A program made the translations under genes and the position numbers. The notes below the pieces were generated by a model, which was given only the letters and a program-made list of their open reading frames with translations, ran no database searches and was not told where the DNA came from. Of a stretch of DNA of 64,000 nucleotides, positions 235 to 14,138 are shown one piece after another. The stretch comes from an uncultured Alloprevotella sp. (GTDB lineage: Bacteria; Bacteroidota; Bacteroidia; Bacteroidales; Bacteroidaceae). The stretch is from NCBI GenBank assembly GCA_944322325.1, contig CALUOQ010000011.1, positions 1-64,000 of the forward strand, written 5' to 3'. Within the stretch, counting starts at the first letter, position 1. Each line of letters begins with the position of its first letter.

Positions 235-633
235 TTACTGTCCGGCGCGGCGGAGCACCTTGTCGCGCAACTTTTCGCGTCCCACGAAAATATATCCGGT
301 CGCATAGGTATCGCCGCCGAGCGTGGACTGCAACCGGGCGAACCCTTCGGGACAATACACATAAAGCACAAGGGACGACGGCTCGCGACGGACGGAGTCG
401 ACAACCAGCGGGGGCAGGTCGCCGTGCGCTGTCTGTCCGACGCGGAGCGTATCGCCGGACTGCGGACGAAAGGCTGCGGTCGGGGTGGTGTACACGCGGC
501 ACGGCCCCTCCCCCACGACGAGGTTCACCGCCTGCTTCGTGCGCATGTCGAAACGGTTCAGGATAAAGAGGATGCCGACAAGCATCAGCACGAGAATGGC
601 AAACACGCCGTAGCGCAAAAGGAGATTCTTCAT
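235..633 (-). CDS. Small membrane-anchored protein at the end of the peptide-export operon
   Basis: The protein has 132 residues. An N-terminal hydrophobic helix (about residues 7-25, after MKNLLLRYG) is followed by a soluble domain that would face the periplasm. I chose the ATG at 633 because the upstream in-frame extension has no hydrophobic logic. The gene starts 50 bp after the C39 ABC exporter gene ends and is the last gene of the minus-strand operon. Position and topology suggest an accessory to the exporter, perhaps a shortened HlyD-type adaptor, but no adaptor coiled coil is visible and I do not recognise the family. No complete HlyD or TolC-type partner is in the window. Confidence 0.7.
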   Translation of the reverse strand: MKNLLLRYGVFAILVLMLVGILFILNRFDMRTKQAVNLVVGEGPCRVYTTPTAAFRPQSGDTLRVGQTAHGDLPPLVVDSVRREPSSLVLYVYCPEGFARLQSTLGGDTYATGYIFVGREKLRDKVLRRAGQ

Positions 634-683
634 TGTGGTCGGATTGGCGATAGTTCTTGAAAACCGTGAAAACGCCGGGTGGC

Positions 684-2870
684 TCAACCCTCGGCCAGTT
701 CCAGCTGGTTCTGAATCAACTCATAGTAATAGCCGCGCTGTGCGACGAGCTCGGCATGGGTGCCGCGCTCCACCACCCGTCCTTTGCGCAGGACGACAAT
801 CTGGTCCGCATTCTTCACCGTCGAGAGCCGGTGGGCGATGACAATGCGCGTACGTCCGCGGAAGTGGCGGTCGAGATTCTCGGTGATGCGCCGCTCGTTC
901 TCGGCGTCGAGCGAGCTGGTGGCCTCGTCGAGCATCAGGTACTGCGGGTCCTTGTAAATGGCACGGGCAATCATCATGCGCTGCTTCTCGCCGCCACTCA
1001 CGCTGATGCCCTCCGAGCCGACTTTCGTCTCGAGTCCGAGCGGCTGTTTCTCGACGTAATCCGTCAGGCAGGCCATCTCGACGGCGCGGGCCAGGCGGGC
1101 GTTGTCCTCGGGCTCACCGAGCAGGATGTTGCGGCGCACCGTGTCCGAGAAGATAAAGTTATCCTGCATCACGATGCCCGACGCCTGGCGCATGGATTTG
1201 GCCGTGTAGTCTGCCAAGGGGCGGCCGCCCAGCAGGATATCGCCGCCGGTGGGCGCATAGAACTTAAGGAGCAGTTTCATGAGCGTTGTCTTGCCGCTGC
1301 CGCTCTCGCCGACGATGGCCGTCATGCGACCGGCCGGGATGGTGAAGCTGACGTCCTCGAGGGCCGGTTGCCCGATGCGCCCCGTGTAGCTGAACGTCAG
1401 GTGGCGCACCTCGATGTCGAGCGGCGCCGCGGCGGGCACTGCCGTCTGCAAGCGGCTGTCCTCGTCCTTGCAAAGGTGCACCTCCTCCGAACGTTCCAGA
1501 CTGATTTTCGCATCCTGAAACTGTTGCAGGAAACCGATGAGCTGCGACAGCGGGCCGTTGACCTGCCCGATAATGGTCGAGATACTCATCATCATGCCGA
1601 GCGTCAGGTTGCCGTCGACCACCTCCGCCGCAATCCAACACGTAATAAAGATGTTGCGCAACTGGCCAATGACTGTGAATCCCGTGCTCTGTATCTGCCC
1701 GAGCTTCAGGGTCTTCTGGCTCATGCGGTACTGCCGCTCCTGGAGCTCGCGCCACTCGTCGAGCTTGTAGTCTTCGTAGGCGTTGAGCTTAATGTCCGTG
1801 ATGCCCGACATGAGCTCGTACTGCTTGTTCTGGTTCTCGGCGCTTATCTTGAACTGCTCGTAGTCCAAGGCCTTGCGCCGCCGGAAGAAGTAGGTCATCC
1901 ACGCCGTGCTCAGTCCCGTCAGGAACAGGTAAGCCACCAGAATGACGGGGCTGTACCAGCCGATGATGGCCAGGTAAAACGGCGCCGACACGAGGGAGAA
2001 GAACGTCTGCAACGTGCTGTAGGTGACGAAGGACTGCAGGCGCCCGTGGTCGCCGAGGCGCTGCTGGTAGTCGCCCACGCTCTTCGTCTCAAAGAAAGTC
2101 ATAGGCAGGCGCAGGAGCTTCGTCAGGTAGTCGCTCAGGATGTGGATGTTGATGCGCGTCGTCATGTACAGGCTCACCCAGCTGCTGATGAGCCCCATGG
2201 AGAACGTACCGACGAAGATAAATATCTGCGCCATCATGATACTCACGATGAGCCCCATGTCGCGCAGCCCGATGCCGTCGTCCACCATGGCCTGCGTCAG
2301 GAACGGCGTCACGAGCGACAGCAAGATGCCGAAGAGCATGCCGAAAGCCGACTGCGACATCTCCCACCGGAAGGGCCACACGTATTTCCGCGCGAAGCGC
2401 ACGAAACTGTGCTTCTCCTTCACCGGCTTCTTGTCGTAGAAGGCTTGCGTCGGGTCGACGGCCACGGCCACACCGCGCTCGCCGTTTAGCCAGAAGTGGG
2501 CGAAACTCTCCTCCGAGAAGGCGTGCTTGCCGTAGGCCGGGTTGGCCACGTAGTATTTCCAGCGGCCGCGCCAGCGGCTGCGCTTCACGTCGTAGAGCAC
2601 GACGAAGTGGTTCTGCTCCCAGTGCAGGATGGCGGGCAGGGGGCACCGCGTGCGCAACTGTTCAAGCGTCAGTTCGAACGTGCCGCTCTCCATGCCTATC
2701 TCGCGCAGGGCGTCGCGAATGCCGGCCACGCTCACGCCCTCGCGGGTCAGGTGAGCCAGCGTGCGCAGATACGACAGGGGGTACTCTTTCCCGAAGGCCG
2801 ATGCCACCATGCGGATGCAGGCCGGGCCGCAGTCCATCTGGTCGAATTGGCGGGTATAGCGCAGTTTCAT
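684..2870 (-). CDS. Peptidase-containing ABC transporter (C39 peptidase, membrane domain, ATPase)
   Basis: The protein (728 residues) should cleave a GG leader and export the peptide across the inner membrane. The N-terminal C39 domain has catalytic Cys14 in QMDCGPAC and His88 in QNHFVVLYD. The usual third catalytic position (DPA in the family) reads NPA here. A six-helix membrane domain follows (about residues 185-470). The ATPase domain carries Walker A GESGSGKT, signature VSGGEKQR, Walker B LMLDEATSSLD and H-loop AHRLST. The ATG at 2870 has an AAGGAC-like ribosome site and puts the catalytic Cys at the usual place. It starts 14 bp after the GT14 gene and is co-transcribed with two GG-leader precursors, which are its likely substrates. 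Confidence 0.95.
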   Translation of the reverse strand: MKLRYTRQFDQMDCGPACIRMVASAFGKEYPLSYLRTLAHLTREGVSVAGIRDALREIGMESGTFELTLEQLRTRCPLPAILHWEQNHFVVLYDVKRSRWRGRWKYYVANPAYGKHAFSEESFAHFWLNGERGVAVAVDPTQAFYDKKPVKEKHSFVRFARKYVWPFRWEMSQSAFGMLFGILLSLVTPFLTQAMVDDGIGLRDMGLIVSIMMAQIFIFVGTFSMGLISSWVSLYMTTRINIHILSDYLTKLLRLPMTFFETKSVGDYQQRLGDHGRLQSFVTYSTLQTFFSLVSAPFYLAIIGWYSPVILVAYLFLTGLSTAWMTYFFRRRKALDYEQFKISAENQNKQYELMSGITDIKLNAYEDYKLDEWRELQERQYRMSQKTLKLGQIQSTGFTVIGQLRNIFITCWIAAEVVDGNLTLGMMMSISTIIGQVNGPLSQLIGFLQQFQDAKISLERSEEVHLCKDEDSRLQTAVPAAAPLDIEVRHLTFSYTGRIGQPALEDVSFTIPAGRMTAIVGESGSGKTTLMKLLLKFYAPTGGDILLGGRPLADYTAKSMRQASGIVMQDNFIFSDTVRRNILLGEPEDNARLARAVEMACLTDYVEKQPLGLETKVGSEGISVSGGEKQRMMIARAIYKDPQYLMLDEATSSLDAENERRITENLDRHFRGRTRIVIAHRLSTVKNADQIVVLRKGRVVERGTHAELVAQRGYYYELIQNQLELAEG

Positions 2871-2884
2871 TCCGTTTGTCCTTA

Positions 2885-3769
2885 TTATAATATAGGTGTG
2901 CCGCCGTCGCGATGGCGATTGATGCACTCGATGAGCCCCGCCGACGTGCGGCTGTCCACCTTACGGGCGAACAAGGCGTCCGAGGCCAGGAGGGCGGGCA
3001 GGTCCGTCTCGTCAAGCACGGCGGGGCTTTGGCCACGGCGCGGGGTCCAGTCGATGTAGCGCAGCAGGCGGTCCGTCAGCGTGTCGCGCAGCGGGGAGTT
3101 CATCAGGAGCGTCTGCACGTACACCTCCTCGGGCACATAGGTATCGGCCAGCCGGTCGTACCACTCGTTCCAGTTGACGTGCGTGCAGACGTAGTCCACC
3201 GCCTCGCGCGTCAGGTCACACCACGTCGACCCGCCGTACACGGGAAAGTCGGGCAACGGGCGCATTTTTCCTGTCGCCCGCTGACGACGCAGATAACGGC
3301 TGTAGATGGCCAGCTCGTGCTCGTTGCGCAGGTCCAGCCGGTCCAGCGGGTGGCGCCAGGCCAGGCGCATCCATCCGCCGTGCCACCGCGGGGTGGGCAG
3401 CGGGAAGATTTCCATGAAGTTCTGCCCCTGGTGCGCCTCGAAAAAGTCACAGAACGCCTGCGGCGACTTCAACAGCAGATCCGTCCCGCTGACGAGGTGC
3501 AGGTAAGCGGCGTCGGGCGAACCCTCCAGCGCGCGGCGGCAGAGCCACAGGATGGCGTCGACGTGTGCCCGGCTGCCCCAGTTGACGGCGTATTCCTGCC
3601 CCACGGCCTTCACCCCGGGCAGCCCCTCCAGCAGGCGCCGTGCCGCCGCGCTCAGGTAGACGCGGCGGTCCACGTGGATGTACACGTCGAACCGCTCGTC
3701 GAAACTCGTGACCAGGTCCACCAGGTGGAGGAAGTCCGTATAAGCCGTTATCAGAATCGCATGTCGCAT
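2885..3769 (-). CDS. GT14-like glycosyltransferase (core-2/I-branching enzyme family)
   Basis: The protein has 294 residues. The N-terminus (MRHAILITAYTDF) and the C-terminal block from YIDW through SPAVL to ALFARKVD match the family of core-2/I-branching beta-1,6-GlcNAc transferases and xylosyltransferases. The middle has a conserved Trp/Tyr/Gly-rich acceptor region (YGGSTWCDL). No signal peptide is seen, so it should act in the cytoplasm. The ATG at 3769 is the first one that gives the family N-terminus. It sits inside the peptide operon between the barrel protein and the C39 exporter. This suggests it extends a sugar on the peptide, although the family is also common in polysaccharide loci. 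The acceptor is inferred. Confidence 0.85.
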   Translation of the reverse strand: MRHAILITAYTDFLHLVDLVTSFDERFDVYIHVDRRVYLSAAARRLLEGLPGVKAVGQEYAVNWGSRAHVDAILWLCRRALEGSPDAAYLHLVSGTDLLLKSPQAFCDFFEAHQGQNFMEIFPLPTPRWHGGWMRLAWRHPLDRLDLRNEHELAIYSRYLRRQRATGKMRPLPDFPVYGGSTWCDLTREAVDYVCTHVNWNEWYDRLADTYVPEEVYVQTLLMNSPLRDTLTDRLLRYIDWTPRRGQSPAVLDETDLPALLASDALFARKVDSRTSAGLIECINRHRDGGTPIL

Positions 3770-3848
3770 AGGCAGCAAAGACAAAATTAGTTCATTTTCC
3801 GTTTCTGGCCAAACCGCGCGCCATTGACAATTAAGATACCGCAGGCTC

Positions 3849-3971
3849 GTAGGGGCGCGCCATAGGCACGCCCGCTTGCCGCATGTCCCCGCAATCACAG
3901 AAACTGGCTTTACGTGAGTCTGCACAGCGGCGAGGCTGGGTTCACGGGCGTGCCTTGCGGCGCGCCCCTAC
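3849..3971. repeat. Inverted repeat with 26-27-base GGGGCGCGCC-type arms inside the peptide operon
   Basis: The left arm (3849-3874, beginning GTAGGGGCGCGCC) is nearly the reverse complement of the right arm (3945-3971, ending GGCGCGCCCCTAC). About 70 bp lie between them. The arms match those of the tandem units at 11700-12213, but the inner sequence does not. It fills most of the 217-bp gap between the barrel gene and the GT14 gene and would be transcribed as a strong hairpin. No open frame inside is credible. It may be a small non-autonomous element or an RNA processing site. Confidence 0.75.
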
Positions 3972-3986
3972 GTGGTCCATGGTTTG

Positions 3987-6890
3987 TCAACGTTGTTTGG
4001 GCTGCTTGCTGAGGCGGTAGGTGATGCGCAACATGCCGTAGCTCGGTATCACGTTGCGCCACTGCTCGGTGCGGCCCTGTGCGTTGAGGCTGTAGCTGAC
4101 CTGCGACAGCTGGCCGAGGATATCGAAGCCGATGAGCGTGAACGTCAGGTTGCCCTTCAGGATGCTCTTCGAGAGCTGCGCGTTCCATACGAGGTCGCGC
4201 GTGTTCATCGACTCGTCCGAGTAGCCATAACGCCAGATGTAGCTGAAGTCCGTGGCCAGCTCCATGTTCCACGGCAGCTGTGCCTTGGCCGACAACCCCG
4301 CGCTCATGTCCGCACCGTTCACGGTTTCAAAACCGGGGCGGTGGCTCGTGGCCCGGTTCCACCAGCTGTCGAAGCTGAAGCCCACGCGCCACTTGTCGCG
4401 GCTGTAGTCCAGCTTAATGGGTGCGTGCAGCGTGTTCGTCAGCACCACGCTGCGGCTGGTGCGCGCCGCGCCGTCCAGCGCCACGAGGTCCACGCTGTGG
4501 TTTACCGTGTGGCCCGGGCTGAAGGTCAGCATCAGGCGCTTCTCCTTGTCCAGCGGCGTGGCGAACGAACCGCTCAACGAGGCGTACCAGTTGCCGTTCA
4601 CGTTCTCGGGGCTGTAGGTGCGCACACCCGTCTGGCTGTCGTACGTGTAGCCCGTGGCCACGGAGTTCTGATATGCCGAAAACTGCGCCCGGGCATTGAG
4701 CATCTGGCCCGATTTCAGCCAACTGCGGGCCCAATATCTGATGTCCAGCGAATACACGTTCGTCCGGCTCAGGTCTATGTCCCAGTCGCGCACGTTGAGC
4801 GGGTCGCTGTCCAGGCGTATCCCCAGCCCGTAGGAAAGCGAGGGGAGCGACTGGCTGAACGTGGCGTTGACGTCAATCTCGTGTTTGTTGCCGGGCGTGA
4901 CACGGGTAAAACCAAGGTTCAGGTAGGGCAGCACCGCCGTGCGCTGCGGGCGTTTGTGCACCTGCCCCTCAAAGGCCAATTGTTCCCGCTGGATGATGAG
5001 ACGCGGACTCCAACTAAAACGTTTTTTTTCATCGCGCTGATACGTCACGCTGTCCAAGACATCCACATCCCAACGTCCTCCGAGATTGAGTGTAACCGTA
5101 TGGTTGTCCTGCGTCTGCAGGTAGCTGTTCACTTCGTCGAGCGTCGAAAGCAGGGCCTCGTGCGTAGAGGGCAGCGCGCCGAGCGGCTCGTCGGCCATAT
5201 CCTCCAGCGCGTCGAGACGGTAGAGGGCGTTGTCCTGCGAACTATGACTATATGAATAAGAAAGATTGGGCGAAAGCATCCATACACCGTCTCCAGAGAG
5301 ATCCCACCATTTACTTAGGGTAAGATTAGCTCTCAAACTATTGGCCGGACGGTCGTAATAACGACGGCGATGGTCAGAAGCAGCCCCCGTAGTGTAGTCC
5401 AAGCGATAGAGGTCATGCGATTCATTCGACTGGCGACTGGCAGTCACACCACCTCCAATGGTATAGCCTCGCTTGCCTGAAAACTCTATCGTACCTCCTC
5501 CGCCAACCGAATAGCCATGGGAAAGTTGCTCGCTACGCACACGGTTGACGAGCAATTGTGTCAAACGTGCGCCGATTTCAGGTGAGCCCATAGAGTCACG
5601 TAAACCGACGTATTCGCTGGGATCGAGGCAAAACTCGCCGGAAAGGTTATGGCTCCAGTTGTCATATTTGCTATAGCTAAAATTAGGAGATATTCTCAGT
5701 TGTGCAAGGAGCTTCGTTTTTTCCTCATTCAAAAAACGAAGTTTCAAACTGTGTGACGTAGACACGGAAGTATTTTCGTTTTCCCCTGTAAACCAGCGCC
5801 GCGCAAAGGTGTTGCTGCCCCCTGGCATGAAGTTCTCCACGGTCTGGTGGGTTTCCGACTTGCCGTCCGTATGCGAAGCCTCCACATTGCCTCCCACTTC
5901 ATAATGATGATTTTTATCCGATATCAGATAATCGAATCCGCCGGTTTTCACCGTAGTTTGCCCGGTGATGTCGCCGGGCCACCAGTCGCCATTGTTGCCT
6001 GGTTTGCGCGTTTCGTTGGTGTTGTTGGCGTTGGCAAAGGCCGAAAGGCGGGACTGCGGCGTGAAGCGTAGCGCAAAGAGGCGCCCCAGCCAGCGGTCCT
6101 CCGTGCCGCCACCCACCTGCGCATTGGCCGTCCAGCCTATCGAGTATTCCCGCTTCAGCCGCACATCCATCACAAGGGCGGGGTCGCTATCCTTGATACC
6201 AGTCATACCACTGAACTCGCTCTGCTTCTCATATACCTTCACATGCTTCACCATGTAAGAGGGCAGGTTTTCAAGCATGATACTGTTTTTCCCATTAAAA
6301 AAAGCCTTACCATTGAGCAGGAGACTCTCCACCTGCTTGCCTTGTACAAAAATGCGACCATCGCGCTTCAACTCCACGCCGGGCAACTGTTCGATAAGGG
6401 CGTCGAGCATCGACCCCTCGGCCAGGTTAAAGGCGTCGGCATTGTAGACCAAGGTATCCCCCTTGTGGTAAAACTTGATTTTCGTGGCGCGCACCACAGC
6501 TGTCCCCAACATTCCTTCTTTCGGCATGCGTTTCAACTCAAACGTGGTGGCTTCCTGCACTTCCCCATCCTTCAGGGTGATGCGCCGCGTCATAGTTTCG
6601 TAACCTTCATGCGTCACCCGGACGATATACTCTCCCGTGGGCGAAGGCGGCTTCAGTGCCGTAAAGTAATGGTTTCGTGAGAATACATCCTGCACCGGTG
6701 CTGCCGCCATAATCAGCACACTGTCCTTAGACAGCAACTCCACCATGGTGCCGTCTACAAGATATTCCCTCGTCACTGCGTCTGTCACCGTTACTCTAAA
6801 ATCAAATCGATTTCCCTTTACTTTCACCTGCGCCGCAAGTTGCATCGACAAAAGGGAAAAGAAGAATAAGAAAATTAATTGCTTTCTCAT
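3987..6890 (-). CDS. TonB-receptor-like outer-membrane beta-barrel protein of the peptide operon
   Basis: The protein has 967 residues. A signal peptide (MRKQLIFLFFFSLLSMQLAA) precedes a carboxypeptidase-regulatory-like beta domain (about 25-125). A plug-like domain follows (about 140-245, with PGVELKRDG and VKVYEK), then a long beta-barrel. The layout fits the outer-membrane beta-barrel family related to TonB-dependent receptors. In this operon it is a candidate route for the finished peptide through the outer membrane, or a receptor for it. The ATG at 6890 places the signal peptide at the start; a longer form would use TTG. A hairpin separates it from the precursor gene upstream. Base composition looks patchy: several stretches between about 5030 and 6890 appear more AT-rich than the 3' part. 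Confidence 0.88.
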   Translation of the reverse strand: MRKQLIFLFFFSLLSMQLAAQVKVKGNRFDFRVTVTDAVTREYLVDGTMVELLSKDSVLIMAAAPVQDVFSRNHYFTALKPPSPTGEYIVRVTHEGYETMTRRITLKDGEVQEATTFELKRMPKEGMLGTAVVRATKIKFYHKGDTLVYNADAFNLAEGSMLDALIEQLPGVELKRDGRIFVQGKQVESLLLNGKAFFNGKNSIMLENLPSYMVKHVKVYEKQSEFSGMTGIKDSDPALVMDVRLKREYSIGWTANAQVGGGTEDRWLGRLFALRFTPQSRLSAFANANNTNETRKPGNNGDWWPGDITGQTTVKTGGFDYLISDKNHHYEVGGNVEASHTDGKSETHQTVENFMPGGSNTFARRWFTGENENTSVSTSHSLKLRFLNEEKTKLLAQLRISPNFSYSKYDNWSHNLSGEFCLDPSEYVGLRDSMGSPEIGARLTQLLVNRVRSEQLSHGYSVGGGGTIEFSGKRGYTIGGGVTASRQSNESHDLYRLDYTTGAASDHRRRYYDRPANSLRANLTLSKWWDLSGDGVWMLSPNLSYSYSHSSQDNALYRLDALEDMADEPLGALPSTHEALLSTLDEVNSYLQTQDNHTVTLNLGGRWDVDVLDSVTYQRDEKKRFSWSPRLIIQREQLAFEGQVHKRPQRTAVLPYLNLGFTRVTPGNKHEIDVNATFSQSLPSLSYGLGIRLDSDPLNVRDWDIDLSRTNVYSLDIRYWARSWLKSGQMLNARAQFSAYQNSVATGYTYDSQTGVRTYSPENVNGNWYASLSGSFATPLDKEKRLMLTFSPGHTVNHSVDLVALDGAARTSRSVVLTNTLHAPIKLDYSRDKWRVGFSFDSWWNRATSHRPGFETVNGADMSAGLSAKAQLPWNMELATDFSYIWRYGYSDESMNTRDLVWNAQLSKSILKGNLTFTLIGFDILGQLSQVSYSLNAQGRTEQWRNVIPSYGMLRITYRLSKQPKQR

Positions 6891-6910
6891 GGCACTACTC
6901 AATCTTTACT

Positions 6911-6939
6911 GTTGGGGAGGCCACGCGTGCCTCCCCAAC
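6911..6939 (-). terminator. GC-rich hairpin between precursor peptides and the barrel gene
   Basis: The arms GTTGGGGAGG (6911-6920) and CCTCCCCAAC (6930-6939) enclose a further CACG/CGTG pairing, giving a stem of about 14 pairs with one bulge. It begins 13 bp after the stop codon of the second precursor gene and ends about 20 bp before the barrel gene start. There is no clear T-run. It therefore looks like a partial terminator or a 3' stabiliser that keeps precursor mRNA abundant relative to the downstream genes. Confidence 0.7.
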
Positions 6940-6952
6940 AATGGTTAGACAA

Positions 6953-7258
6953 TCAGAAGAACATACCGAAACCGGCAATCATCGGAGAGACGGGCTCCTT
7001 GGGCGGGTCGGTGGGTTCGGGGGCTTTTGTCTGACAATTACACGTACAATTGTCATTGTGAGAGCAATAAGGAGAATTACAATCACAGTTCTCATTTCCG
7101 GTGCAATCCCCCGTATTGCAACTGCAATTTCCATTCGTAGCTCCTCCACGACCAACAGTCGCATTAAGCATTACAAACCCTCCACGGAGCAAGCCTTCCT
7201 TGTCTTCCTCCATGCGCGGAACATCTACGAGTTCCGATAGCATTTTCTTGATGCGCAT
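6953..7258 (-). CDS. Cys-rich GG-leader precursor peptide A (radical SAM-modified natural product)
   Basis: The peptide has 101 residues. Residues 1-27 form a leader (from MRIKKMLSEL to LLRGG) with the cleavage pair Gly26-Gly27 used by C39 peptidases. The core has nine Cys in a 13-residue repeat starting at 44, 57 and 70: NCSCNTGDCTGNE, NCDCNSPYCSHND, then NCTCNC. The tail is Pro-rich (TDPPKEPVSPMI) and ends GFGMFF. Leader and tail are almost the same as in precursor B, while the core differs. The ATG at 7258 is chosen; a longer form would need TTG. The maturase, the glycosyltransferases and the C39 exporter are in the same operon. It resembles the GG-Bacteroidales peptide type recalled from protein family models. 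Confidence 0.85.
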   Translation of the reverse strand: MRIKKMLSELVDVPRMEEDKEGLLRGGFVMLNATVGRGGATNGNCSCNTGDCTGNENCDCNSPYCSHNDNCTCNCQTKAPEPTDPPKEPVSPMIAGFGMFF

Positions 7259-7310
7259 ATTCAAAAGTTTTTCTTATTATTCCGGCACTATTGCCATTTA
7301 TTTCTACAAA

Positions 7311-7661
7311 TTAAAAGAACCGCCCAAAACCTGGTATCATAGGTGACACAGGCTCTTTTGGAGGGTCTGTCACCTCGGGAGGTGCCGTATTAACGCAAGT
7401 ACAGTTCATGTTGAAATTGCAAATGTCATTGCAGTCGCAATTTCCATTATCTTCTTCTAACGCACAACTGCAATTTACATTGACTATAAACTCAACATCT
7501 TCACTTAAGCACTCCTTGTTACAAACACAATTTACATTCCTCACATTACTATCAGACCCAGACGAAGACAACATTACGAATCCTCCTCGGAGCAAGCCTT
7601 CCTTGTCCTCCTCCATGCGCGGAACATCTACGAGTTCCGATAACATACGTTTTATTCGCAT
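7311..7661 (-). CDS. Cys-rich GG-leader precursor peptide B (radical SAM-modified natural product)
   Basis: The peptide has 116 residues. The leader (1-27, ending LLRGG) differs from that of peptide A at one residue (Arg5 for Lys5). The core has ten Cys with NCxC units at 44, 63, 74 and 86 (NCVC, NCSC, NCDC, NCTC), at uneven spacing, unlike the exact 13-residue period of peptide A. The tail TDPPKEPVSPMIPGFGRFF matches A. The start ATG at 7661 gives the shared N-terminus MRIKRMLSEL. It lies 47 bp after the radical SAM gene and 52 bp before precursor A. The pair looks like a tandem duplication in which leader and tail stayed fixed while the core changed. Confidence 0.85.
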   Translation of the reverse strand: MRIKRMLSELVDVPRMEEDKEGLLRGGFVMLSSSGSDSNVRNVNCVCNKECLSEDVEFIVNVNCSCALEEDNGNCDCNDICNFNMNCTCVNTAPPEVTDPPKEPVSPMIPGFGRFF

Positions 7662-7708
7662 GATACTAAAAATTATAGGATTAAACTTCAGCGGCACACT
7701 GACCGCCC

Positions 7709-9019
7709 TTAAACTTGTTGTGTTTGTTTCACAATTTCCTCCACGCGGGCCTTGATGTAGGCATCCTTGTCCGCCTCGCTCATGCCGCGGTAACACTCTG
7801 TCTGCTTGGCGGCTTCCATCTTGCTTTGGGAGCAGCCCCCGTTGCAGATGGGCAGGATTTTACAGGCGAGGCAGGCGGGATTGACGTAGCGCAAGCGCAT
7901 ACGCCGCTCGTAAACGTCGTTCAGCTCGACGGAGCCGTCGTCGTGGAGCACCCCTTCGCGCTGGGCGGACACGAAGTCGCGGGCCGTGCACTTGAAGATG
8001 TCGCCGTTGTAGTTGATGACCAGGTGCTGCGGCGTGTCGGCGTAGCAGACGTGGCGGTAGTGGATATTGTCGGTCCCGACGCGGTAGCCGTCTGCCTTGA
8101 AGGCGTCGCGCACCTGAACCAAATAGGGCTGTACGGCCTCGCGGGTGCCGCCGTCCTGCCACACGTGCTCGAACTTCACGGAGAGGAGGTTGCCATAGTC
8201 GGCCAGGTGGCGCGCATTGAAGTCGCCAAGCGTATCGAGGAAAGTGAGGATGTTGTCGAACGTATAGTTGAACCGGACGAACACCTCATGCCCGCGCCGC
8301 AGGGCCGCCTCGACATGAGCGAGAATGACGTCGTACGTCGGCTCGCGGTTGGCGCCGTAGCGCACCCGGTCGTGCCAGTTGCGGTAGCCGTCGAAGGTGA
8401 TTTGGAACGTGGCCGGCTTGGCCAGGGGCAGGGCGTCGAGGGCCTCGAGCACCTCGTCCGTCAGGAGGACGCCGTTGGTCGTGAAGTTGGAGTAAAGCCG
8501 CACCTGCCGAGGCGCACAGGCCTCGGCGGCGTATTGCAGGATGGGGAGCACGGCCTTGCGGAACGAGAGCAGGGGCTCGCCCCCGAAGAACGACACGTTG
8601 AGGCTGCGCAGGCGCTCGTCGGCCGTGCGGGCCGCGATGAGCCGACAGATGGCCTCGCGCGTGGTGTCGGAAATGACGGTGCCGGCGCGGTGCTCCTCAT
8701 AGCAGTACCAGCAGCGCAGGTTGCAGGCCAGCGTGGGGTTGATGGTGATGCCGAAATGGCTGGGGTCGTCGTCCTGGGCCTTCCAGCGGGCCACGAGATC
8801 CTCCGCCTCGTCGGCATCGTCGGGCACGAGGCACTGCGTGCGGTACAGCTGCTCGTAGAACGTGGGGTGGACGTCGCGCAGGGCGTCAGGCTGCCCGGCA
8901 TGGCGGGCCAAAAGCTCGGCCAGCTCGGGCTCAAGCACGAAAATCTGTTCACCAGCGGCGTTGAACAAGAGGGTGCGCCGTCCGTCGGGATGGGTGGATA
9001 CGTATTTGCTCAGTCTCAT
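7709..9019 (-). CDS. Radical SAM/SPASM peptide maturase
   Basis: The protein has 436 residues. The radical SAM cluster motif CNLRCWYC uses Cys99, Cys103 and Cys106. FFGGEPLL is the SAM-binding GGE motif. A C-terminal SPASM-type region with Cys383, 386, 392, 396 and 409 (CKILPICNGGC) would bind auxiliary iron-sulfur clusters. The N-terminal 90 residues are typical of peptide-maturase members. Known relatives make thioether or carbon-carbon crosslinks in ribosomal peptides; the Cys-rich precursors 47 bp downstream are the likely substrates. Its ATG overlaps the stop of the upstream fusion gene (ATGA), which implies coupled translation. The exact linkage cannot be read from the sequence. Confidence 0.93.
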   Translation of the reverse strand: MRLSKYVSTHPDGRRTLLFNAAGEQIFVLEPELAELLARHAGQPDALRDVHPTFYEQLYRTQCLVPDDADEAEDLVARWKAQDDDPSHFGITINPTLACNLRCWYCYEEHRAGTVISDTTREAICRLIAARTADERLRSLNVSFFGGEPLLSFRKAVLPILQYAAEACAPRQVRLYSNFTTNGVLLTDEVLEALDALPLAKPATFQITFDGYRNWHDRVRYGANREPTYDVILAHVEAALRRGHEVFVRFNYTFDNILTFLDTLGDFNARHLADYGNLLSVKFEHVWQDGGTREAVQPYLVQVRDAFKADGYRVGTDNIHYRHVCYADTPQHLVINYNGDIFKCTARDFVSAQREGVLHDDGSVELNDVYERRMRLRYVNPACLACKILPICNGGCSQSKMEAAKQTECYRGMSEADKDAYIKARVEEIVKQTQQV

Positions 9020-11523
9020 GATATGGATTGAACGGTTAGACTTTTATTGGAAATTCTCTCGATGTGTGGCGCCATGAGCATCGCCCGGAGCGAAGCGCCT
9101 GCCACGCCTCCGGCGAGGGAGAGCGACCAGAAATCGGAATTGCGCGGCAGGAACAGGGCCGCCCCGCACCAGTCGGCCGGCGAGGGCGGCAGGTCGTCGA
9201 CGTCGCTGCCATCGCGCCGCAGGGCTGCATAAAGATAAGCATAATAGAGGGCCGTTTCGTCGCACGACGCGTGCTTCACGCGGGCGGCCAGGCGGTCCCA
9301 GCGCCGCAAGCGGGCCGGCGTCCAGCCCGTCGGCGTGCCGAGGCCCAGGCGCAGACACAGGTAGGGCAACACGCCCGCCAGGCCGGTGTCGAAACCAAGG
9401 TTATCGCCACCGGTGGGGTCAAGCAGGGCCAGCTGACGGTCGACAGCGTCGACCAGTTCGGCGGGATAGTCCTCCAGCAGACCGGCACGCCACAGGTAGA
9501 GGGCACACCAGCCCACGCCGCTCAGCCCGTAGCCGAAGCCCCACGGCAGGCGGCAAGCCTGCACGGCGGCTTCCACTTCGGTCCACAAAGCGGCGGCCTC
9601 GTCCTCGCAGGCGGGCCGACCGGCATGGCGCGCATAGCGGCAGAGCCACAACGCCCGTCCGGCCCGGCCCTCATAGAGTCCGTCGCCCACGGGCGCACAG
9701 CGCGTCAGGCGGTCGTAAATGTCGGGCAGGTGGTCCAACAGCTCGCACACGGCGGCGGAGGCGGTGGTGTCGATGCCGCGCCGCTCGGCATGGAGGGAGA
9801 GCACGTCGGCCATCGGGCGCGTGAAAATGGAACGGTAGTAGGCGCGCAAGCGGCCGAGCGAACGGCGGCGGGCCGAAAGGTCGTGCAGGGCCTGCACGGC
9901 GGTGGGTCCCCTTTGCCGCAGGGCACGGACCAGCGCGCGGCAATAGAGCGACTGCGGGAACAGGAGGCGGGCGATGAGCAACTGGTTGTAGACGGACTCC
10001 TTGCCCAGGATGACGTAAGGCGCGGCGTTGCGATAGACGTGACCGATGACGACGTCCTTCAGCAGGACGCAACGACCGCCCTCGAGCCAGACCTTGAAAC
10101 TGAGATAAGCCTCGTCGGAACCGTAACTGCGCAAGCCCGCCAAGCCCCGCAGCCGGGCCCAGTAGCGCCGGCTGGCGGCATAGCCTGCCCCGAGCACGGC
10201 GGCGATGTCCTCGCGCGGCTCGCCGGGACGCATCTCGCGCAGGTTCCACGCGATGTCGGGCCACACGGCCCTGTGACCGAAGGGGCAATAGGCGCCATAA
10301 GTCGTCGGACAGGGATCGACGGCGCTCAGTTCGCCCGTTTCGGGATGGTGATAAAGGAAGCGCGTCTGGCAGCAGAGCAGTTGCCGGTCGTCGGCCTGCA
10401 AGGCCTCAACCACGCGGTCGACCCAAGTGGCGTCATAAAAACGCATGTGGGCGTCGAGCAGCAGGAAATAGGGCGTGCGGCACAAGCGCACGCCCAGGTC
10501 GCGCGAAGCGGCCACGCCGCGGCGCGTACGGTTCAGAACGTAGTGGACGCCACAGGAAGCCAGCTGCTCGCCGTAGGGAAAGCCGTCGTACGAGCCGTCG
10601 TTGATGACGAGGATGTCGACGCGGTCACCTGCCGTATCGCGGACACCGCGGACGGTGGCGACGACCTCCTCGCCTTCGTTGAGGAAAGGAATGATGACGG
10701 TCAGGAGGTTCGAGGTATCGGGCAGGCGGAGGGGCGACGGCAGGGCCCACGGGACTTCGCTGCGCGTCTGCCAACGGACGATTTCCTCCTTGACGCGCCG
10801 ACCGGCCTCGTCCTGCGCGGCCTTGTGCACAGCGCTGACCTGCGCAGGCGACACCCTATATTTAATGAGTGGACGGTCCAGATTAACGAGACGCAGCCCG
10901 GCCTCGAGGGCCATGACCCACAAGCGGTAGTCCTCGGCGTAGATATACTCCTGTTCGTAGCGGAGACCGTGGGCCTCTATCGAGGCGCGCCGCATCATGA
11001 CCGTAGGGTGCATCAGGGCACAGCCGCGCATGAACAGGCTGAACGTCAGTGGCCTTTCGCCGGGTTGCGGCAGGGCAGTGCCGTGCGCACCGCCGAAATA
11101 CGTCATGCCGCCCCCGAGGATGTCGACTTCGGGATGGGTCTCCATGTAGTCGACCTGCACCTGCAGACGGTCAGGCAGCATGAGGTCGTCGGCGTCCATG
11201 CGGGCCACGTAACGGCCGCGGGCCTCACGCAACAAGAGGTTGAGCGAGCCGATATAGTCGTGCGCGTTTTCCAAAAGGCGGATGCGCGGATCGGCATAGG
11301 CCCGGACAACGTCGCGACTGCTGTCCGTGGAGCCATCGTCGACGATGAGAAGCTCGAAGTCGGTATAGGTCTGCGCCAAGATACTGTCGATGCACTCGCC
11401 AAGATGGACCGCGGCATTGTACACGGGCACGCAAACGGAAACAGTGGGAGCGTCGCTACGCATGACGACCGCCTCGCGCGAAGCGGGGGAAGCCGGGCTT
11501 GTGGGAAGAGTTGCGGTCGCCAT
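9016..11523 (-). CDS. Fusion of two GT-A glycosyltransferases (second GalNAc-transferase-like) and a LanC-like domain
   Basis: The protein has 835 residues and heads the operon. Domain 1 (about 26-260) is a GT2 glycosyltransferase with VDDGSTD and ARMDADD. Domain 2 (about 273-520) has VINDGSYDG, a DAH metal motif at 357-359, SDEAYLSFKVWLEGG at 469-483 and GHVYRN at 494-499. This series follows the order seen in polypeptide GalNAc-transferases (DSH, ENLEISFRIWQCGG, GHVFR). Domain 3 (about 595-835) has repeated Gly-rich helices (GLYEGRAGRALWL, FGYGLSGVGW, GFDTGLAGVLPYL) like LanC toroids. I see no CHG-type zinc ligands, so lanthionine cyclisation is doubtful. The second domain suggests O-glycosylation of the precursors. 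Glycosyltransferases are known companions of GG-Bacteroidales peptides. This three-part layout is what stands out. Confidence 0.85.
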   Translation of the reverse strand: MATATLPTSPASPASREAVVMRSDAPTVSVCVPVYNAAVHLGECIDSILAQTYTDFELLIVDDGSTDSSRDVVRAYADPRIRLLENAHDYIGSLNLLLREARGRYVARMDADDLMLPDRLQVQVDYMETHPEVDILGGGMTYFGGAHGTALPQPGERPLTFSLFMRGCALMHPTVMMRRASIEAHGLRYEQEYIYAEDYRLWVMALEAGLRLVNLDRPLIKYRVSPAQVSAVHKAAQDEAGRRVKEEIVRWQTRSEVPWALPSPLRLPDTSNLLTVIIPFLNEGEEVVATVRGVRDTAGDRVDILVINDGSYDGFPYGEQLASCGVHYVLNRTRRGVAASRDLGVRLCRTPYFLLLDAHMRFYDATWVDRVVEALQADDRQLLCCQTRFLYHHPETGELSAVDPCPTTYGAYCPFGHRAVWPDIAWNLREMRPGEPREDIAAVLGAGYAASRRYWARLRGLAGLRSYGSDEAYLSFKVWLEGGRCVLLKDVVIGHVYRNAAPYVILGKESVYNQLLIARLLFPQSLYCRALVRALRQRGPTAVQALHDLSARRRSLGRLRAYYRSIFTRPMADVLSLHAERRGIDTTASAAVCELLDHLPDIYDRLTRCAPVGDGLYEGRAGRALWLCRYARHAGRPACEDEAAALWTEVEAAVQACRLPWGFGYGLSGVGWCALYLWRAGLLEDYPAELVDAVDRQLALLDPTGGDNLGFDTGLAGVLPYLCLRLGLGTPTGWTPARLRRWDRLAARVKHASCDETALYYAYLYAALRRDGSDVDDLPPSPADWCGAALFLPRNSDFWSLSLAGGVAGASLRAMLMAPHIERISNKSLTVQSIS

Positions 11524-11551
11524 ACGTGAATTGTGAATTATAGTTACGCCC

Positions 11552-11582
11552 CAAAGATAAGAAATGTTTTTCGCCCCCCCAA
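11552..11582 (-). promoter_or_regulatory. Promoter of the peptide operon
   Basis: On the minus strand the sequence reads TTG (11580-11582), 20 bases, then TATCTTTG (11552-11559). This is the Bacteroidota primary sigma-factor form. It lies 29 bp before the ATG at 11523. It is the only strong promoter I see for the eight-gene operon, apart from possible internal ones. Confidence 0.75.
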
Positions 11583-11699
11583 GAAAACTTTTACTTTTTT
11601 TCGTTTGTGCTCCGTCGCCTTAATAAAAAAGCCAAACAGGCCTCGTAAAAAAACGACAAGATTCAGTAAAATTCGGACAAAGTAAAGAAAAAAGTCAGG

Positions 11700-12213
11700 A
11701 AAGCACCAGCCGTCAGGCACGCCCGCGGAGCCGGTTTCGTCCGTTGGTATCGGTGTGTCGGGCATAGTTCCTGCAGTCTGCCGGGCGTGCCTGACGGCGC
11801 GCTCCTACCTGCGTTTTCGCTCGACAGCGCTACGTAACGGATTGTTTTATTTGTGGTTAGCGACGGGCGCTGTCTCGTAGGGGCACGCCGTCAGGCATGC
11901 CCGCGAGCCCGGTTTCGTCCGATGGTATCGGTGTGTCGGACGTAGTTTCTGGCGGGCAGCCGGGCGTGCCTGACGGCGCGCCCCTACCTGCGTTTTCGTT
12001 CGGCGGCGCGACGTAACGGCGTGTCTTATTCGCTGTTAGCGACGGGCGCTGACTCAAGGGGCGCGCCGAAAGGCACGCCCGCGAACCCGGTTTCGTCCGT
12101 TGGGAATCGGTGTGTCGGGCGCAGCTTCAGGCGGGCAGCCGGGCGTGCCTTGCGGCGCGCCCTTACCTGCGTTTTCGCTCGGTAGCGCGACGTAACGGAT
12201 TGCCTTATTGTAT
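11700..12213. repeat. Three tandem copies of a 178-bp unit
   Basis: Units lie at about 11700-11876, 11877-12054 and 12055-12213, the last one short at its 3' end. Landmarks such as GCCCGCG recur at 11721, 11899 and 12077, a constant 178-bp step. Each unit contains an inverted repeat with GGGGCGCGCC-type arms around a block with GGTTTCGTCCG, then a conserved tail with CCTGCGTTTTCG and GCGACGTAACGG. Copies 2 and 3 differ by scattered substitutions. Together with the AT-rich stretch 11584-11700 this fills the gap between the peptide operon and the FKBP operon. I see no gene in it. Confidence 0.9.
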
Positions 12214-12241
12214 GCGCTGCATCCCTATGGTCATATACGCA

Positions 12242-12277
12242 CCGTGCGGGCACTCCGGAAAGGGAATGCCCGCACGG
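12242..12277 (-). terminator. Hairpin after the FKBP operon
   Basis: Arms CCGTGCGGGCA (12242-12252) and TGCCCGCACGG (12267-12277) form an 11-bp perfect stem about 40 bp past the stop of the last FKBP gene. It probably ends the minus-strand FKBP transcripts. Confidence 0.6.
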
Positions 12278-12317
12278 CTTGGGTGACCACCCGCGGCGCG
12301 GAGCCGCGTCGGAGGGG

Positions 12318-13193
12318 TTATTTCACGATGTTGAGCAGCTCGACCTTGAAGATGAGCGTCGAGAACGGCGGGATGCCCTGGTTACCCCGTTCGCCGTAGG
12401 CCAGGTTGTAGGGAATGAACAGCTCCCATGTGGAACCCACGGGCATCAGTTGCAGGGCCTCGGTCCAGCCCTTGATGACCTGGTTGCAGGCGAACGTGGC
12501 CGGCTTGCCGCGTTGGTAGGACGAGTCGAAGACGGTGCCGTCGATGAGGCGGCCTTCGTAGTTCACCTCGACCTGGCTCGTGTCGGTGGGCAGGGCGCCG
12601 GTGCCCTTCTTCAGGATACGGTATTGCAGTCCCGAGGGGAGCGTGACGACGCCCTCAGCCTCCTTGTTGGCTTCGAGGTAGGCCATGTTGCGCAGGCTGT
12701 CCTGCTGGCGGACGAAGGCAGACTGGCGCTCGATGAGGGCAATGGCCTCCTGCTGTGTCAGGCCGGAGGGCTGGTGCAAAAGGCCTTCGGAGAGTCCTTT
12801 CTCGAAGAGTTTGCGGTCGATGTAGGTGGTGTCCTTTTTGCCCGTCGCCACCTGGTTAAGCGAAGGCAGGGCAGCCGTGTTCATCTGCGCGATCTTCAGG
12901 CCGGCAGCATAAGCGATTTTGCCTTTGGCGGCCTTCTCGTTGAAGCCGGCAATCATGCCGCACACGACGTCGTTGAGATAGGCCGTGTCAACGCCTTCAC
13001 GCTGCACGAGGTACTGCTTCAGGCTGGCGCTCTGAGCCAGTCCCATGGCGTAGCTGAACGAATCGGCCGGCACGGGCTGGAGGCGCTCGACTTGGGGGTC
13101 CTTCTTCGACGTTTTCTTCTTCCGCGAGCTGGCCGGGGAGGCGAGGCAGACGCTCAAGGCCAGTCCGACGAGAAATAGGGTCTTCCGTGTCAT
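12318..13193 (-). CDS. FKBP-type peptidyl-prolyl cis-trans isomerase, secreted
   Basis: The protein has 291 residues. The signal peptide (MTRKTLFLVGLALSVCLASPA) lacks a lipobox. A basic linker (RKKKTSKK) and an FkpA-type N-terminal dimerisation region (about 40-180, beginning FSYAMGLAQS) follow. The C-terminal FKBP domain (about 185-290) shows VEVNYEGRLIDGTVFDSS, VIKGWTEALQLMPVG and IPYNLAYG. It should fold proteins in the periplasm. It is the last of three tandem FKBP genes on the minus strand, 9 bp after its neighbour. Confidence 0.93.
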   Translation of the reverse strand: MTRKTLFLVGLALSVCLASPASSRKKKTSKKDPQVERLQPVPADSFSYAMGLAQSASLKQYLVQREGVDTAYLNDVVCGMIAGFNEKAAKGKIAYAAGLKIAQMNTAALPSLNQVATGKKDTTYIDRKLFEKGLSEGLLHQPSGLTQQEAIALIERQSAFVRQQDSLRNMAYLEANKEAEGVVTLPSGLQYRILKKGTGALPTDTSQVEVNYEGRLIDGTVFDSSYQRGKPATFACNQVIKGWTEALQLMPVGSTWELFIPYNLAYGERGNQGIPPFSTLIFKVELLNIVK

Positions 13194-13202
13194 GACGCCG
13201 CG

Positions 13203-14096
13203 TTATTTAGCAATGCCGTCCACGGTGACCTTGAAAATCAGCACGGAGTAAGGCGGGATTTCGGGAGTACCCTGGTTGCCATAGGCCATTTCGGCGGGAA
13301 TGTAAATCTCCCACGTCGAGCCGACAGGCATGTGCGTCAGCGCAGCGCCGAAGCCCTTAATGCTGCGCGAAGGCACCATCTCGATGGCCTTGCCGTTATT
13401 GGTCTTGTCGGTGGAGTCGAAAACTTTTCCGTCGGTCAGACGGCCTTCGTAGCGGATCAAGACGCGCGAGGTGTCAGCGGGGATTTCGCCCTTGCCTTCG
13501 GTGATGACGCGATACTGCACGCCGTCCTGCAACTGCTTGACGCCGTCCTTCTTGGCATTCTCGGCGAGGAACTTCTCACCGGCGGCCTTGACGTCGCCGT
13601 ATTTCTTCTCGAGCACGCTGCTGCGGATAGCGTCCATGCGCTTCGTAGCCGACTCGTAGGCCTCCATCGGGGTGAGGACCTTTCCGTTCACCTCGACGGT
13701 GTTGATCTCCTGCACACCGGCCGCAAAACCGGCCACGACGTTCTTCACGCTGAGGTGCTGGGTGGAGTCGCCGTCGAAGATCTGCATTTCCATGCCGCGG
13801 ACCATGCGCTGGCTGATCTCCTGACCGATCTGAATACCGGCGTAGTAGGCCGATTTCTTCTTGTCGTCGGCGGAGAGGGCTCCGTCGCGGACACCCTTGA
13901 GGAACTCGTCGACATAGGCGGAGTCGACGCCGTACTGCTGGGTCATGATGGCCTTGAAGTTGTTCGAGCTGGCCAGACCCATCTCGTAGCTGAGCGAGTC
14001 GACTTCCGTTTTGAGGTTCGCCTTGGGCGTACCGTTGTTGCAGGCGCTCACAAGCGCCGTTGCGGCCACAGCGGCCGCCATGATTACGTGTTTCAT
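13203..14096 (-). CDS. FKBP-type peptidyl-prolyl cis-trans isomerase, lipoprotein
   Basis: The protein has 297 residues. The lipobox LVSAC at about residues 15-19 predicts a lipoprotein. An FkpA-like N-terminal region (DSLSYEMGLASSNNF) leads to a C-terminal FKBP domain with VLIRYEGRLTDGKVFDSTD, SIKGFGAALTHMPVG and IPAEMAYGNQG. It differs from its neighbour in being membrane-anchored. It lies 42 bp downstream of the cytoplasmic FKBP gene, and the two are probably co-transcribed. Confidence 0.93.
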   Translation of the reverse strand: MKHVIMAAAVAATALVSACNNGTPKANLKTEVDSLSYEMGLASSNNFKAIMTQQYGVDSAYVDEFLKGVRDGALSADDKKKSAYYAGIQIGQEISQRMVRGMEMQIFDGDSTQHLSVKNVVAGFAAGVQEINTVEVNGKVLTPMEAYESATKRMDAIRSSVLEKKYGDVKAAGEKFLAENAKKDGVKQLQDGVQYRVITEGKGEIPADTSRVLIRYEGRLTDGKVFDSTDKTNNGKAIEMVPSRSIKGFGAALTHMPVGSTWEIYIPAEMAYGNQGTPEIPPYSVLIFKVTVDGIAK

Positions 14097-14138
14097 ATAA
14101 AGATTATTATACAGTGGCGTGAATAAACCGGACCGGGG

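What the first reader, a model, noticed from the sequence alone, without database searches (positions are those of the whole stretch)
235..11582. Eight-gene operon for a Cys-rich, probably glycosylated, radical-SAM-modified peptide
Seen: eight minus-strand genes from one good promoter encode two GG-leader Cys-rich precursors, a radical SAM-SPASM maturase, a glycosyltransferase/LanC-like fusion, a GT14 enzyme, a C39 exporter, an outer-membrane barrel and a small membrane protein. Known: GG-Bacteroidales systems with a maturase, a glycosyltransferase and a C39 exporter have been described as protein-family neighbourhoods. Inference: the product carries both radical-SAM crosslinks and O-linked sugars and may cross the outer membrane through its own barrel. 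That combination is, to my knowledge, not characterised.
Basis: partly seen in the sequence, partly recalled or inferred. Interest (0 to 1): 0.85.

Follow-up and report, generated by a model that had tools for sequence, protein, structure and literature searches.

The report
Mucin-like tailed Asn-Cys radical-SAM peptides
A gut-type Bacteroidales bacterium carries several gene sets that appear to make small exported peptides with a cross-linked Asn/Cys-repeat body and a probably sugar-coated, mucin-like Thr/Pro tail, each paired with its own outer-membrane barrel; this looks like an undescribed natural-product family, but no product has been seen.

Summary
The operon is real and belongs to a family. 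The genome holds three more loci of the same design; 17 of 399 sampled family genomes match its glycosyltransferase-fusion profile. The 19 fusion loci mapped share a radical-SAM/SPASM maturase; a GT2 + GT27-like (polypeptide-GalNAc-transferase-like) + LanC-like fusion without LanC zinc ligands; GG-leader precursors; a barrel. Findings: (1) 142 of 199 Cys in 28 precursors have Asn three residues upstream (N-x-x-C; 49 expected), against 25 of 107 (22 expected) in relatives lacking the fusion; (2) a Thr/Pro-rich tail occurs in 25 of 28 precursors, against 1 of 23; (3) a strong hairpin follows the precursor gene in 19 of 22 places; (4) barrel homologues are widespread (341 of 399 genomes) and persist in loci without intact biosynthetic genes, so a receptor or immunity role fits better than a dedicated export conduit. 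Cross-linking and glycosylation are inferred. It is not the GG-Bacteroidales family (maturase 44 bits, cut-off 300), and a second promoter-like site precedes GT14. Best reading: an undescribed family of glycosylated, N-x-x-C cross-linked RiPPs with cognate outer-membrane partners. Structure prediction could not be obtained.

The parts
11552..11582 (-). Bacteroidales-type promoter-like site (TTG-N20-TAnnTTTG) before the first gene
   Evidence: 6 matches in the window, 0.10 expected from shuffles; the consensus itself is recalled
9016..11523 (-). GT2 + GT27-like + LanC-like fusion (835 aa)
   Evidence: residues 272-512 match ppGalNAc-T10, E 4.2e-13; D357, H359 and H495 in 19 of 19; no Cys or His column conserved at 50% in residues 600-835
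7709..9019 (-). radical SAM/SPASM maturase (436 aa)
   Evidence: best PDB match 5wgg; CX3CX2C in 19 of 19 and seven SPASM Cys in 18 of 19 of its group
7311..7661 (-). precursor A1: GG leader, N-x-x-C core (10 of 10 Cys), T/P tail ending GFGRFF
6953..7258 (-). precursor A2: near-identical leader, N-x-x-C core (6 of 9 Cys), T/P tail ending GFGMFF
6908..6942 (-). 14-bp hairpin between the precursors and the barrel gene
   Evidence: z -3.4; a strong stem in 19 of 22 homologous places
3987..6890 (-). outer-membrane barrel with a carboxypeptidase-regulatory-like N-terminal part
3782..3812 (-). second promoter-like site, 12 nt upstream of the likely GT14 start
2885..3769 (-). GT14 (Core-2/I-branching) glycosyltransferase; the longest ORF reaches 3925
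   Evidence: xylosyltransferase 1, E 1.6e-5
684..2870 (-). C39 peptidase-ABC exporter; third catalytic residue is Asn as in most of its group
235..633 (-). small one-TM protein directly 3' of the exporter; adaptor role is a guess
   Evidence: no convincing relative

Best explanation
The operon makes two exported RiPPs. Shown by sequence: GG leaders, N-x-x-C repeat cores, Thr/Pro-rich tails, hydrophobic C-termini, a radical SAM/SPASM enzyme of the kind that matures Cys-rich peptides, a fusion with a GT27-like domain, a C39 exporter, and a barrel gene directly after the precursors. Inferred steps: (1) the maturase binds the leader and links Cys to the Asn three residues before it, most likely by a thioether to a side-chain or alpha carbon; (2) the GT2/GT27-like/LanC-like fusion puts O-linked sugars on the Thr/Ser of the tail in the cytoplasm, the LanC-like part serving as a non-catalytic peptide holder, and GT14 (GT11 in a sister locus) extends the sugar; (3) the hairpin behind the precursor gene sets the precursor above the barrel; (4) the exporter cuts after GG and exports the product; being the only full C39-ABC found in this genome, it probably serves the sister loci too; (5) the barrel is the cognate surface partner of the peptide (receptor, or immunity form of its target), not merely its way out.
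For: N-x-x-C: 142 of 199 Cys in 28 precursors against 48.7 (sd 5.1) in shuffles; relatives without the fusion 25 of 107 against 22.2. Tails: at least five T+P in 15 Cys-free residues in 25 of 28 precursors against 1 of 23; T+S+P maximum 8.9 against 3.2 on average; per locus 19 and 19, p 2.6e-7 (loci are not independent). GT27-like match E 4.2e-13 with its motif residues in 19 of 19. Fusion-linked maturases, 18 of 18, are one side of a tree branch, support 81. Fusion in the same locus as a maturase in 19 of 20 places. Sugar genes in sister loci: GT11, GT14, a nucleotide-sugar dehydratase-like gene, an FkbM methyltransferase. Hairpin in 19 of 22, controls 0 of 15 and 2 of 14. One full C39-ABC in the genome. 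A precursor directly upstream of 22 of 25 barrels; barrels kept in partial or bare loci.
Against: No product, mass or structure is known. The T/P tail, hydrophobic C-terminus, N-x-x-C, fusion and barrel all mark one group, so their associations may reflect one event; the branch that unites its maturases has support 81, under the 95 that the program stars. PapB does not accept Asn for Asp (PMC8172795, passage), so a thioether to Asn is not a given. Exceptions in fusion loci: the precursor of L155 has 0 of 4 Cys in N-x-x-C; precursors of L185, L161 and the second of L158 have under five T+P. The LanC-like and barrel matches are below their Pfam cut-offs, and the barrel profile has no PDB match. 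Barrels of fusion loci are somewhat clustered in the tree (9 changes, shuffles 13.6, 3 of 500 as low), as a locus-bound role would also give.
Confidence: 0.5

Rival explanations
1. The barrel is a dedicated export conduit for the peptide, working with the C39 exporter and the small membrane protein.
For: Barrel gene directly after a precursor in 22 of 25 cases; no membrane-fusion-protein-like gene noticed beside the exporters of fusion loci (by eye, not a family search); PCAT + OMP without MFP noted in other Bacteroidales clusters (PMC10352776, section 3.2), and TonB-receptor-related proteins predicted to export graspetides (PMC8939145, passages); some clustering of locus barrels in the tree.
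Against: Barrel homologues in 341 of 399 genomes; 0 of 20 genomes chosen for close barrels outside such loci have the full fusion; locus and solitary barrels mix in the tree; the small protein shows no homology to MFPs.
Confidence: 0.2
2. The peptide is an antimicrobial that hits relatives through a surface barrel, and the operon's barrel is the producer's resistant version, as in the BSAP toxins.
For: Precursor-barrel pairing, with tandem pairs in L154 (three, the last cut by the contig end) and L163 (two); solitary close barrels in genomes without the fusion; BSAP genes lie beside resistant target replacements (PMC4999547, abstract and passages).
Against: No killing known; no immunity gene recognised by eye; solitary barrels could equally be receptors for uptake.
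Confidence: 0.35
3. The peptide is a metal- or nutrient-binding public good and the barrel its TonB-type uptake receptor, pirated by non-producers.
For: Cys-rich cores with CxC pairs; plug-like N-terminal sequence by eye; genomes with barrels far outnumber those with the fusion.
Against: Cross-linked Cys would not bind metal as thiolates; no metal-import or reductase genes noticed by eye among the neighbours; no plug recognised by Pfam.
Confidence: 0.15
4. The GT fusion glycosylates something else (surface glycan or the barrel) and is only a passenger.
For: Its first domain is a common GT2; the barrel is also a surface protein.
Against: Fusion in the same locus as the maturase in 19 of 20 places; its presence goes with Thr/Pro tails in the precursors; GT27 enzymes act on polypeptides (established for the eukaryotic family).
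Confidence: 0.12
5. The maturase does not link Asn to Cys; it acts on Asn alone (for example epimerisation) or on Cys with other partners, and the Cys form disulfides after export.
For: N-x-x-C says only that the two residues are tied to each other; none of the maturase models listed reaches its cut-off (best 25 of 60 shown), so the chemistry cannot be read from a family name.
Against: The best-scoring models shown are largely for maturases of Cys-rich peptides and the best PDB match is the ranthipeptide maturase CteB; full SPASM ligand set.
Confidence: 0.25

Closest known systems
Ranthipeptides / sactipeptides (PapB, CteB, RumMC)
   Same: radical SAM/SPASM maturase, Cys-rich core, leader; best PDB match 5wgg, which PMC10352776 names CteB
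   Different: acceptor pattern is Asn three residues before Cys; no listed NCBIfam maturase model reaches its cut-off; GT fusion, barrel and T/P tail
GG-Bacteroidales system (TIGR04148/04149)
   Same: Bacteroidales, GG leader, radical SAM, C39-type export
   Different: maturase 43.7 bits against cut-off 300; the ten precursors scanned match no model
Bacteroidales RiPP clusters BGC3-5 of PMC10352776 (radical SAM + LanC-like; BGC3 with glycosyltransferase)
   Same: LanC-like parts without zinc ligands; radical SAM; GG-type precursors
   Different: there LanC-like proteins, glycosyltransferase and pseudo-radical-SAM proteins are listed as separate enzymes; here GT2, GT27-like and LanC-like parts are one protein (pseudo-radical-SAM genes were not searched for; none was noticed)
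Mycofactocin (MftF glycosylation)
   Same: radical-SAM-modified RiPP that is then glycosylated (PMC7491314, abstract; the radical SAM step is recalled)
Polypeptide GalNAc-transferases (GT27) and GT14 branching/xylosyltransferases
   Same: second GT domain matches ppGalNAc-T10; GT14 matches xylosyltransferase 1
   Different: bacterial, fused to GT2 and LanC-like parts; donor sugar unknown
BSAP toxins with adjacent resistant target (PMC4999547)
   Same: gene of a secreted agent beside an outer-membrane protein gene with relatives in other strains
   Different: BSAPs are MACPF proteins, not modified peptides

Membership tests
GG-Bacteroidales system | maturase over TIGR04148 cut-off | tested here: not met
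   43.7 bits, cut-off 300
GG-Bacteroidales system | precursor matching TIGR04149 | tested here: not met
   no match for the two window precursors or in the genome (that search rang in no control genome either)
RiPP with PCAT export | GG leader plus C39-ABC in the locus | tested here: met
   catalytic Cys and His present, third residue Asn (the triad is recalled)
Radical SAM/SPASM peptide maturases | CX3CX2C and seven SPASM Cys | tested here: met
   19 of 19 and 18 of 19; the 19 include L156, whose contig ends before a fusion could be seen, and L185, the one without, whose gene is split
Ranthipeptide / sactipeptide | Cys thioether to a beta/gamma or alpha carbon | not testable with these tools
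   needs mass spectrometry/NMR
Named Cys-rich maturases (TIGR04280, TIGR04463, CefB NF038107, Clo7bot TIGR04334, PapB NF047865) | score over the curated cut-off | tested here: not met
   140.5/400, 128.6/525, 123.9/600, 119.2/600, 100.9/340 bits
Lanthipeptide cyclase (LanC) | conserved zinc ligands | tested here: not met
   no Cys or His column conserved at 50% in residues 600-835 of 19 fusions
GT27 | DxH metal motif and later His in the GT domain | tested here: met
   19 of 19 (motif recalled); PDB match
GT27 | transfer of GalNAc to Ser/Thr | not testable with these tools
   needs an enzyme assay
TonB-dependent receptor | plug domain and TonB box in a 22-strand barrel | tested here: inconclusive
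   Pfam finds OMP_b-brl_3 below its cut-off and no plug; structure prediction was not obtained
Membrane fusion protein (HlyD type) for the small protein | profile similarity to MFPs | tested here: not met
   hhalign aligns only TM residues, probability under 1%; best PDB hit E 0.17; Pfam only one weak match of the TM end below its cut-off in one of 6 members and chance-level others

The most novel reading that the evidence does not exclude
A new class of bacterial 'mini-mucin' RiPPs: cores stapled by a radical SAM enzyme at every N-x-x-C, a Thr/Pro tail O-glycosylated in the cytoplasm by a GT27-like enzyme and elongated by GT14/GT11 enzymes, and a one-to-one cognate outer-membrane receptor that non-producing gut species keep or acquire without the biosynthetic genes, giving a peptide-receptor economy like that of siderophores or bacteriocins.
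Probability: 0.3. Interest if true: 0.9.

Novelty: new variant of a known kind. Interest (0 to 1): 0.72.

Why it matters
If right, it adds a RiPP family from gut-type Bacteroidales (a named strain, Paraprevotella xylaniphila YIT 11841, carries a locus) that joins radical-SAM cross-links to mucin-type O-glycosylation, offers a bacterial polypeptide glycosyltransferase fused to a LanC-like part, and names a peptide-barrel pairing that makes it possible to ask which gut species produce, sense or resist such peptides. The N-x-x-C rule is a concrete, testable prediction about the chemistry.

Tried and rejected
GG-Bacteroidales membership: rejected by score. A lanthionine route through the LanC-like part: rejected, no zinc ligands. 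The small protein as a shortened membrane-fusion protein: considered because small or full-length MFP-like proteins (by eye) sit at the same place behind other C39 exporters (L167, L181, L076; L175, L176, L085), but profile comparison with L167/L181 and L175/L176 gave nothing. Barrel as specific export partner: weakened. Viral contigs: no match to the maturase patterns. Two further N-x-N-C-x-C DNA matches in the genome (C8, C13) lie in or beside ribosomal-protein and glycosidase-like genes, with no precursor-like ORF seen. Ten literature searches, all that were allowed, listed no paper that I recognised as describing this family: (open-licence PubMed Central papers only; most papers seen as titles and abstract starts). 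Structure prediction of the fusion and of the barrel was tried and not obtained.

Limits of the counts: genome searches sampled 295 genomes of the order and 399 of the family; the fusion and barrel searches scored only the two best candidates in each genome, the family maturase search four. Three of the 17 fusion genomes rest on partial matches (G304, G318, G416). Set B consists of 23 GG-like small ORFs picked by eye from the candidates; several loci without fusion yielded none. Set A (28) leaves out L156 (contig ends before a fusion could be seen), the partial loci L238, L243, L251, L257, and L068-L070, which are the same contigs as those of L158, L154, L153. In one search the leader end was set wrongly for two rows (window A1, L170); one search corrects this for the N-x-x-C counts, and the T/P counts were not redone. 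The 25 barrels include L156. The neighbourhoods were mostly chosen for a close barrel, so 'barrel kept' is partly by selection, and several lie on short contigs. The shuffles kept only base composition; one search repeats the test with dinucleotide shuffles and controls. Trees are quick ones with SH-aLRT support only.
Full report
WHAT IS THERE. Eight minus-strand genes run from 11523 to about 235: a glycosyltransferase fusion (9016-11523), a radical SAM/SPASM maturase (7709-9019, overlapping the fusion by 4 bases), precursors A1 (7311-7661) and A2 (6953-7258), a barrel (3987-6890), GT14 (2885-3769 by the likely start), a C39-ABC exporter (684-2870) and a small one-TM protein (235-633). The window begins at a contig end. 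Pfam and NCBIfam support the domains, the LanC-like and barrel matches only weakly. A promoter-like site of the Bacteroidales type (consensus recalled) lies before the first gene, and a second just before GT14; the whole window has 6 such sites against 0.10 expected. The second lies only 12 nt before the start codon, so it needs an experiment.

THE FUSION ENZYME. The first part is an ordinary GT2 domain; residues 272-512 match solved polypeptide GalNAc-transferases (ppGalNAc-T10, E 4.2e-13; others weaker). In the fusions of the 19 loci mapped, D357 and H359 of the DxH motif and H495 are present in 19 of 19; of the first domain's DxD, D110 is present in 15 and D112 in 16 of the 16 that have a letter there. 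The C-terminal part resembles LanC only weakly (E 0.017) and has no conserved Cys or His, as others reported for LanC-like proteins of Bacteroidales RiPP clusters (PMC10352776; sections 3.2 and 3.4 read, passages of others seen).

SISTER LOCI IN THE SAME GENOME. A search with the maturase found two more loci (C7, C1) and a profile search a fourth on C6. Each has fusion, maturase, precursor(s) and barrel. The C7 locus begins with a GT11-family gene. In the C6 locus the maturase is split over two overlapping frames. Of 18 N-x-N-C-x-C DNA matches in the genome 16 lie in five precursors; the control, the pattern read backwards, gives 5. C39 matches: two in the genome, the window's exporter (100 bits) and a weak one just over the cut-off (23.2 bits) in a C39-VKOR-thioredoxin protein. 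The genome is 90.67% complete, so another exporter may be missing. That one exporter serves all four loci is an inference.

ACROSS GENOMES. The maturase profile (E 1e-70 or better) hits 31 of 399 family genomes, the fusion profile (E 1e-120) 17 of 399. Of the 20 fusion places, 19 lie in the same locus as a maturase (in G648 and G416 with a barrel between them); the exception is G304, where a fusion cut short, GT14, a precursor and damaged barrels remain. In neighbourhood maps exporters of fusion loci are 66-81% identical to the window's (eight of 15 loci of other genomes; the rest are mostly cut by contig ends or lack one in view); more distant maturases (Flavobacteria, other Bacteroidales) mostly sit with a C39-ABC without fusion, L173 being an exception with GT14 and barrel. 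In a tree of 53 maturases the 18 fusion-linked ones are one side of a single branch (support 81, not among the starred; shuffled labels need 14.9 changes). The four loci of this genome are not all recent copies of each other: the window's maturase pairs with G479 (99) and C7 joins these two (99), but C1 pairs with G538 (99) and C6 with G355 (100). Named hosts include Paraprevotella xylaniphila YIT 11841 and an uncultured Alloprevotella; contig lengths equate the latter with G390, a genome of the window's own genus, so the window is probably from that genus (inference).

THE PRECURSORS. Leaders share '..EG.LRGGF'. In 28 precursors of the 19 fusion loci, 142 of 199 Cys have Asn at -3 (48.7, sd 5.1, when non-Cys residues are shuffled); another 12 have Asp. 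In 23 precursors of related loci without fusion the count is 25 of 107 (22.2 expected). The window's N-x-N-C-x-C is thus two interleaved N-x-x-C units; many relatives space them as C-x-N-x-x-C (Cys spacing 5 in 67 of 173 intervals, 2 in 41). Window A1 has 10 of 10, A2 6 of 9; L155 is an outlier with 0 of 4. Behind the core comes a Thr/Pro-rich tail: at least five T+P in some 15-residue Cys-free window in 25 of 28 against 1 of 23; T+S+P maximum 8.9 against 3.2 on average; per locus 9.8 against 3.2, 19 loci each, p 2.6e-7. The exceptions are L185, L161 and the second precursor of L158 on one side, one of the two precursors of L181 on the other. The last residue is hydrophobic in 24 of 28 against 7 of 23. 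No NCBIfam model matches the ten precursors scanned. These traits mark one group and cannot be separated from each other statistically.

MATURASE. CX3CX2C is present in 19 of 19 maturases of the group (18 fusion-linked plus L156) and in 37 of 37 others; the seven SPASM Cys in 18 of 19, the one without being the split C6 gene. The models that score best are largely those of maturases of Cys-rich peptides, none over its cut-off; the best PDB match is 5wgg. Thioethers to Asn are known from thurincin H and ruminococcin C, but PapB refuses Asn in place of Asp (PMC8172795, passages). So an Asn-Cys thioether is the likeliest chemistry, not a shown one.

HAIRPIN. In the 90 nt after the precursor stop codon a strong fold (z -3 or lower) is found in 19 of 22 places (the others: L157 -2.5, L158 -2.4, one of the two in L163 +0.6); the stems differ in sequence, except near-copies in L152 and L154; after the maturase gene 0 of 15; after the barrel gene 2 of 14, both where the next called gene is on the other strand (window stem). 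It probably shields or ends part of the transcripts so that precursor outnumbers barrel (inference).

THE BARREL. In the fusion loci and L156, 22 of 25 barrels have a precursor directly upstream, with three tandem pairs in L154 and two in L163. But barrel homologues (E 1e-100 or better) occur in 341 of 399 genomes; of 20 genomes chosen for close barrels none has a full fusion (4 of 20 show a partial match in its first GT domain); in a tree of 42 barrels the 24 of fusion loci mix with solitary ones (9 changes, though fewer than the 13.6 of shuffled labels). Of 34 neighbourhoods examined, 8 show other operon-like pieces beside a barrel (L236, L238, L243, L244, L251, L257, L262, L272); in six of these a barrel frame of over 900 residues is open, while that of L244 has a stop inside and those of L251 are broken; the other 26 show barrels only. 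A protein needed only to let the product out should vanish with the biosynthetic genes; one that receives or withstands a product made by neighbours need not. BSAP toxins of Bacteroides give a precedent: toxin genes lie beside a resistant version of the target (PMC4999547, abstract and passages). The published view that such barrels may export RiPPs (PMC8939145, passages) stays open.

NOVELTY. It is a RiPP of known general logic, but below the cut-off of the maturase models listed and with a combination that ten full-text searches of open-licence papers did not turn up. 'Radical SAM plus sugar' alone is not new (mycofactocin). I call it a new variant of a known kind. Chemistry, sugar and biological role are untested.

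Noticed in passing
L148 (G000:C8:10001-30000), about 3506-14149: Another possible peptide system in the same genome: two barrels of the same family, a C39-like/VKOR/thioredoxin protein, a methyltransferase-like gene, two small genes resembling GT25 by eye (no Pfam match) and a small Cys-containing ORF with a Gly/Ser stretch.
   Followed up: partly
window 11709-12209: Three tandem copies of a GC-rich intergenic repeat, spacing 178-179 bp, with inverted repeats, between the operon and two genes that look like peptidyl-prolyl isomerases by eye.
   Followed up: no
window 2490-2864 and homologues: The exporters of fusion loci have Asn where C39 peptidases have their third catalytic residue Asp (8 of 9 distinct exporters with that region; L152 keeps Asp), while the others aligned have Asp (triad recalled).
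   Followed up: partly
L185 9462-10771: Maturase of the fourth own locus is split over two overlapping frames while its precursor, fusion and barrel are open.
   Followed up: no
L150 5648-7756 and L164 6734-8914: Genes that look like an ECF sigma factor and its partner lie next to the RiPP locus, a possible regulator (by eye, no family search).
   Followed up: no
L166 7206-7892: A stand-alone gene that looks LanC-like by eye (no Pfam match) behind a C39-ABC and maturase without fusion.
   Followed up: no
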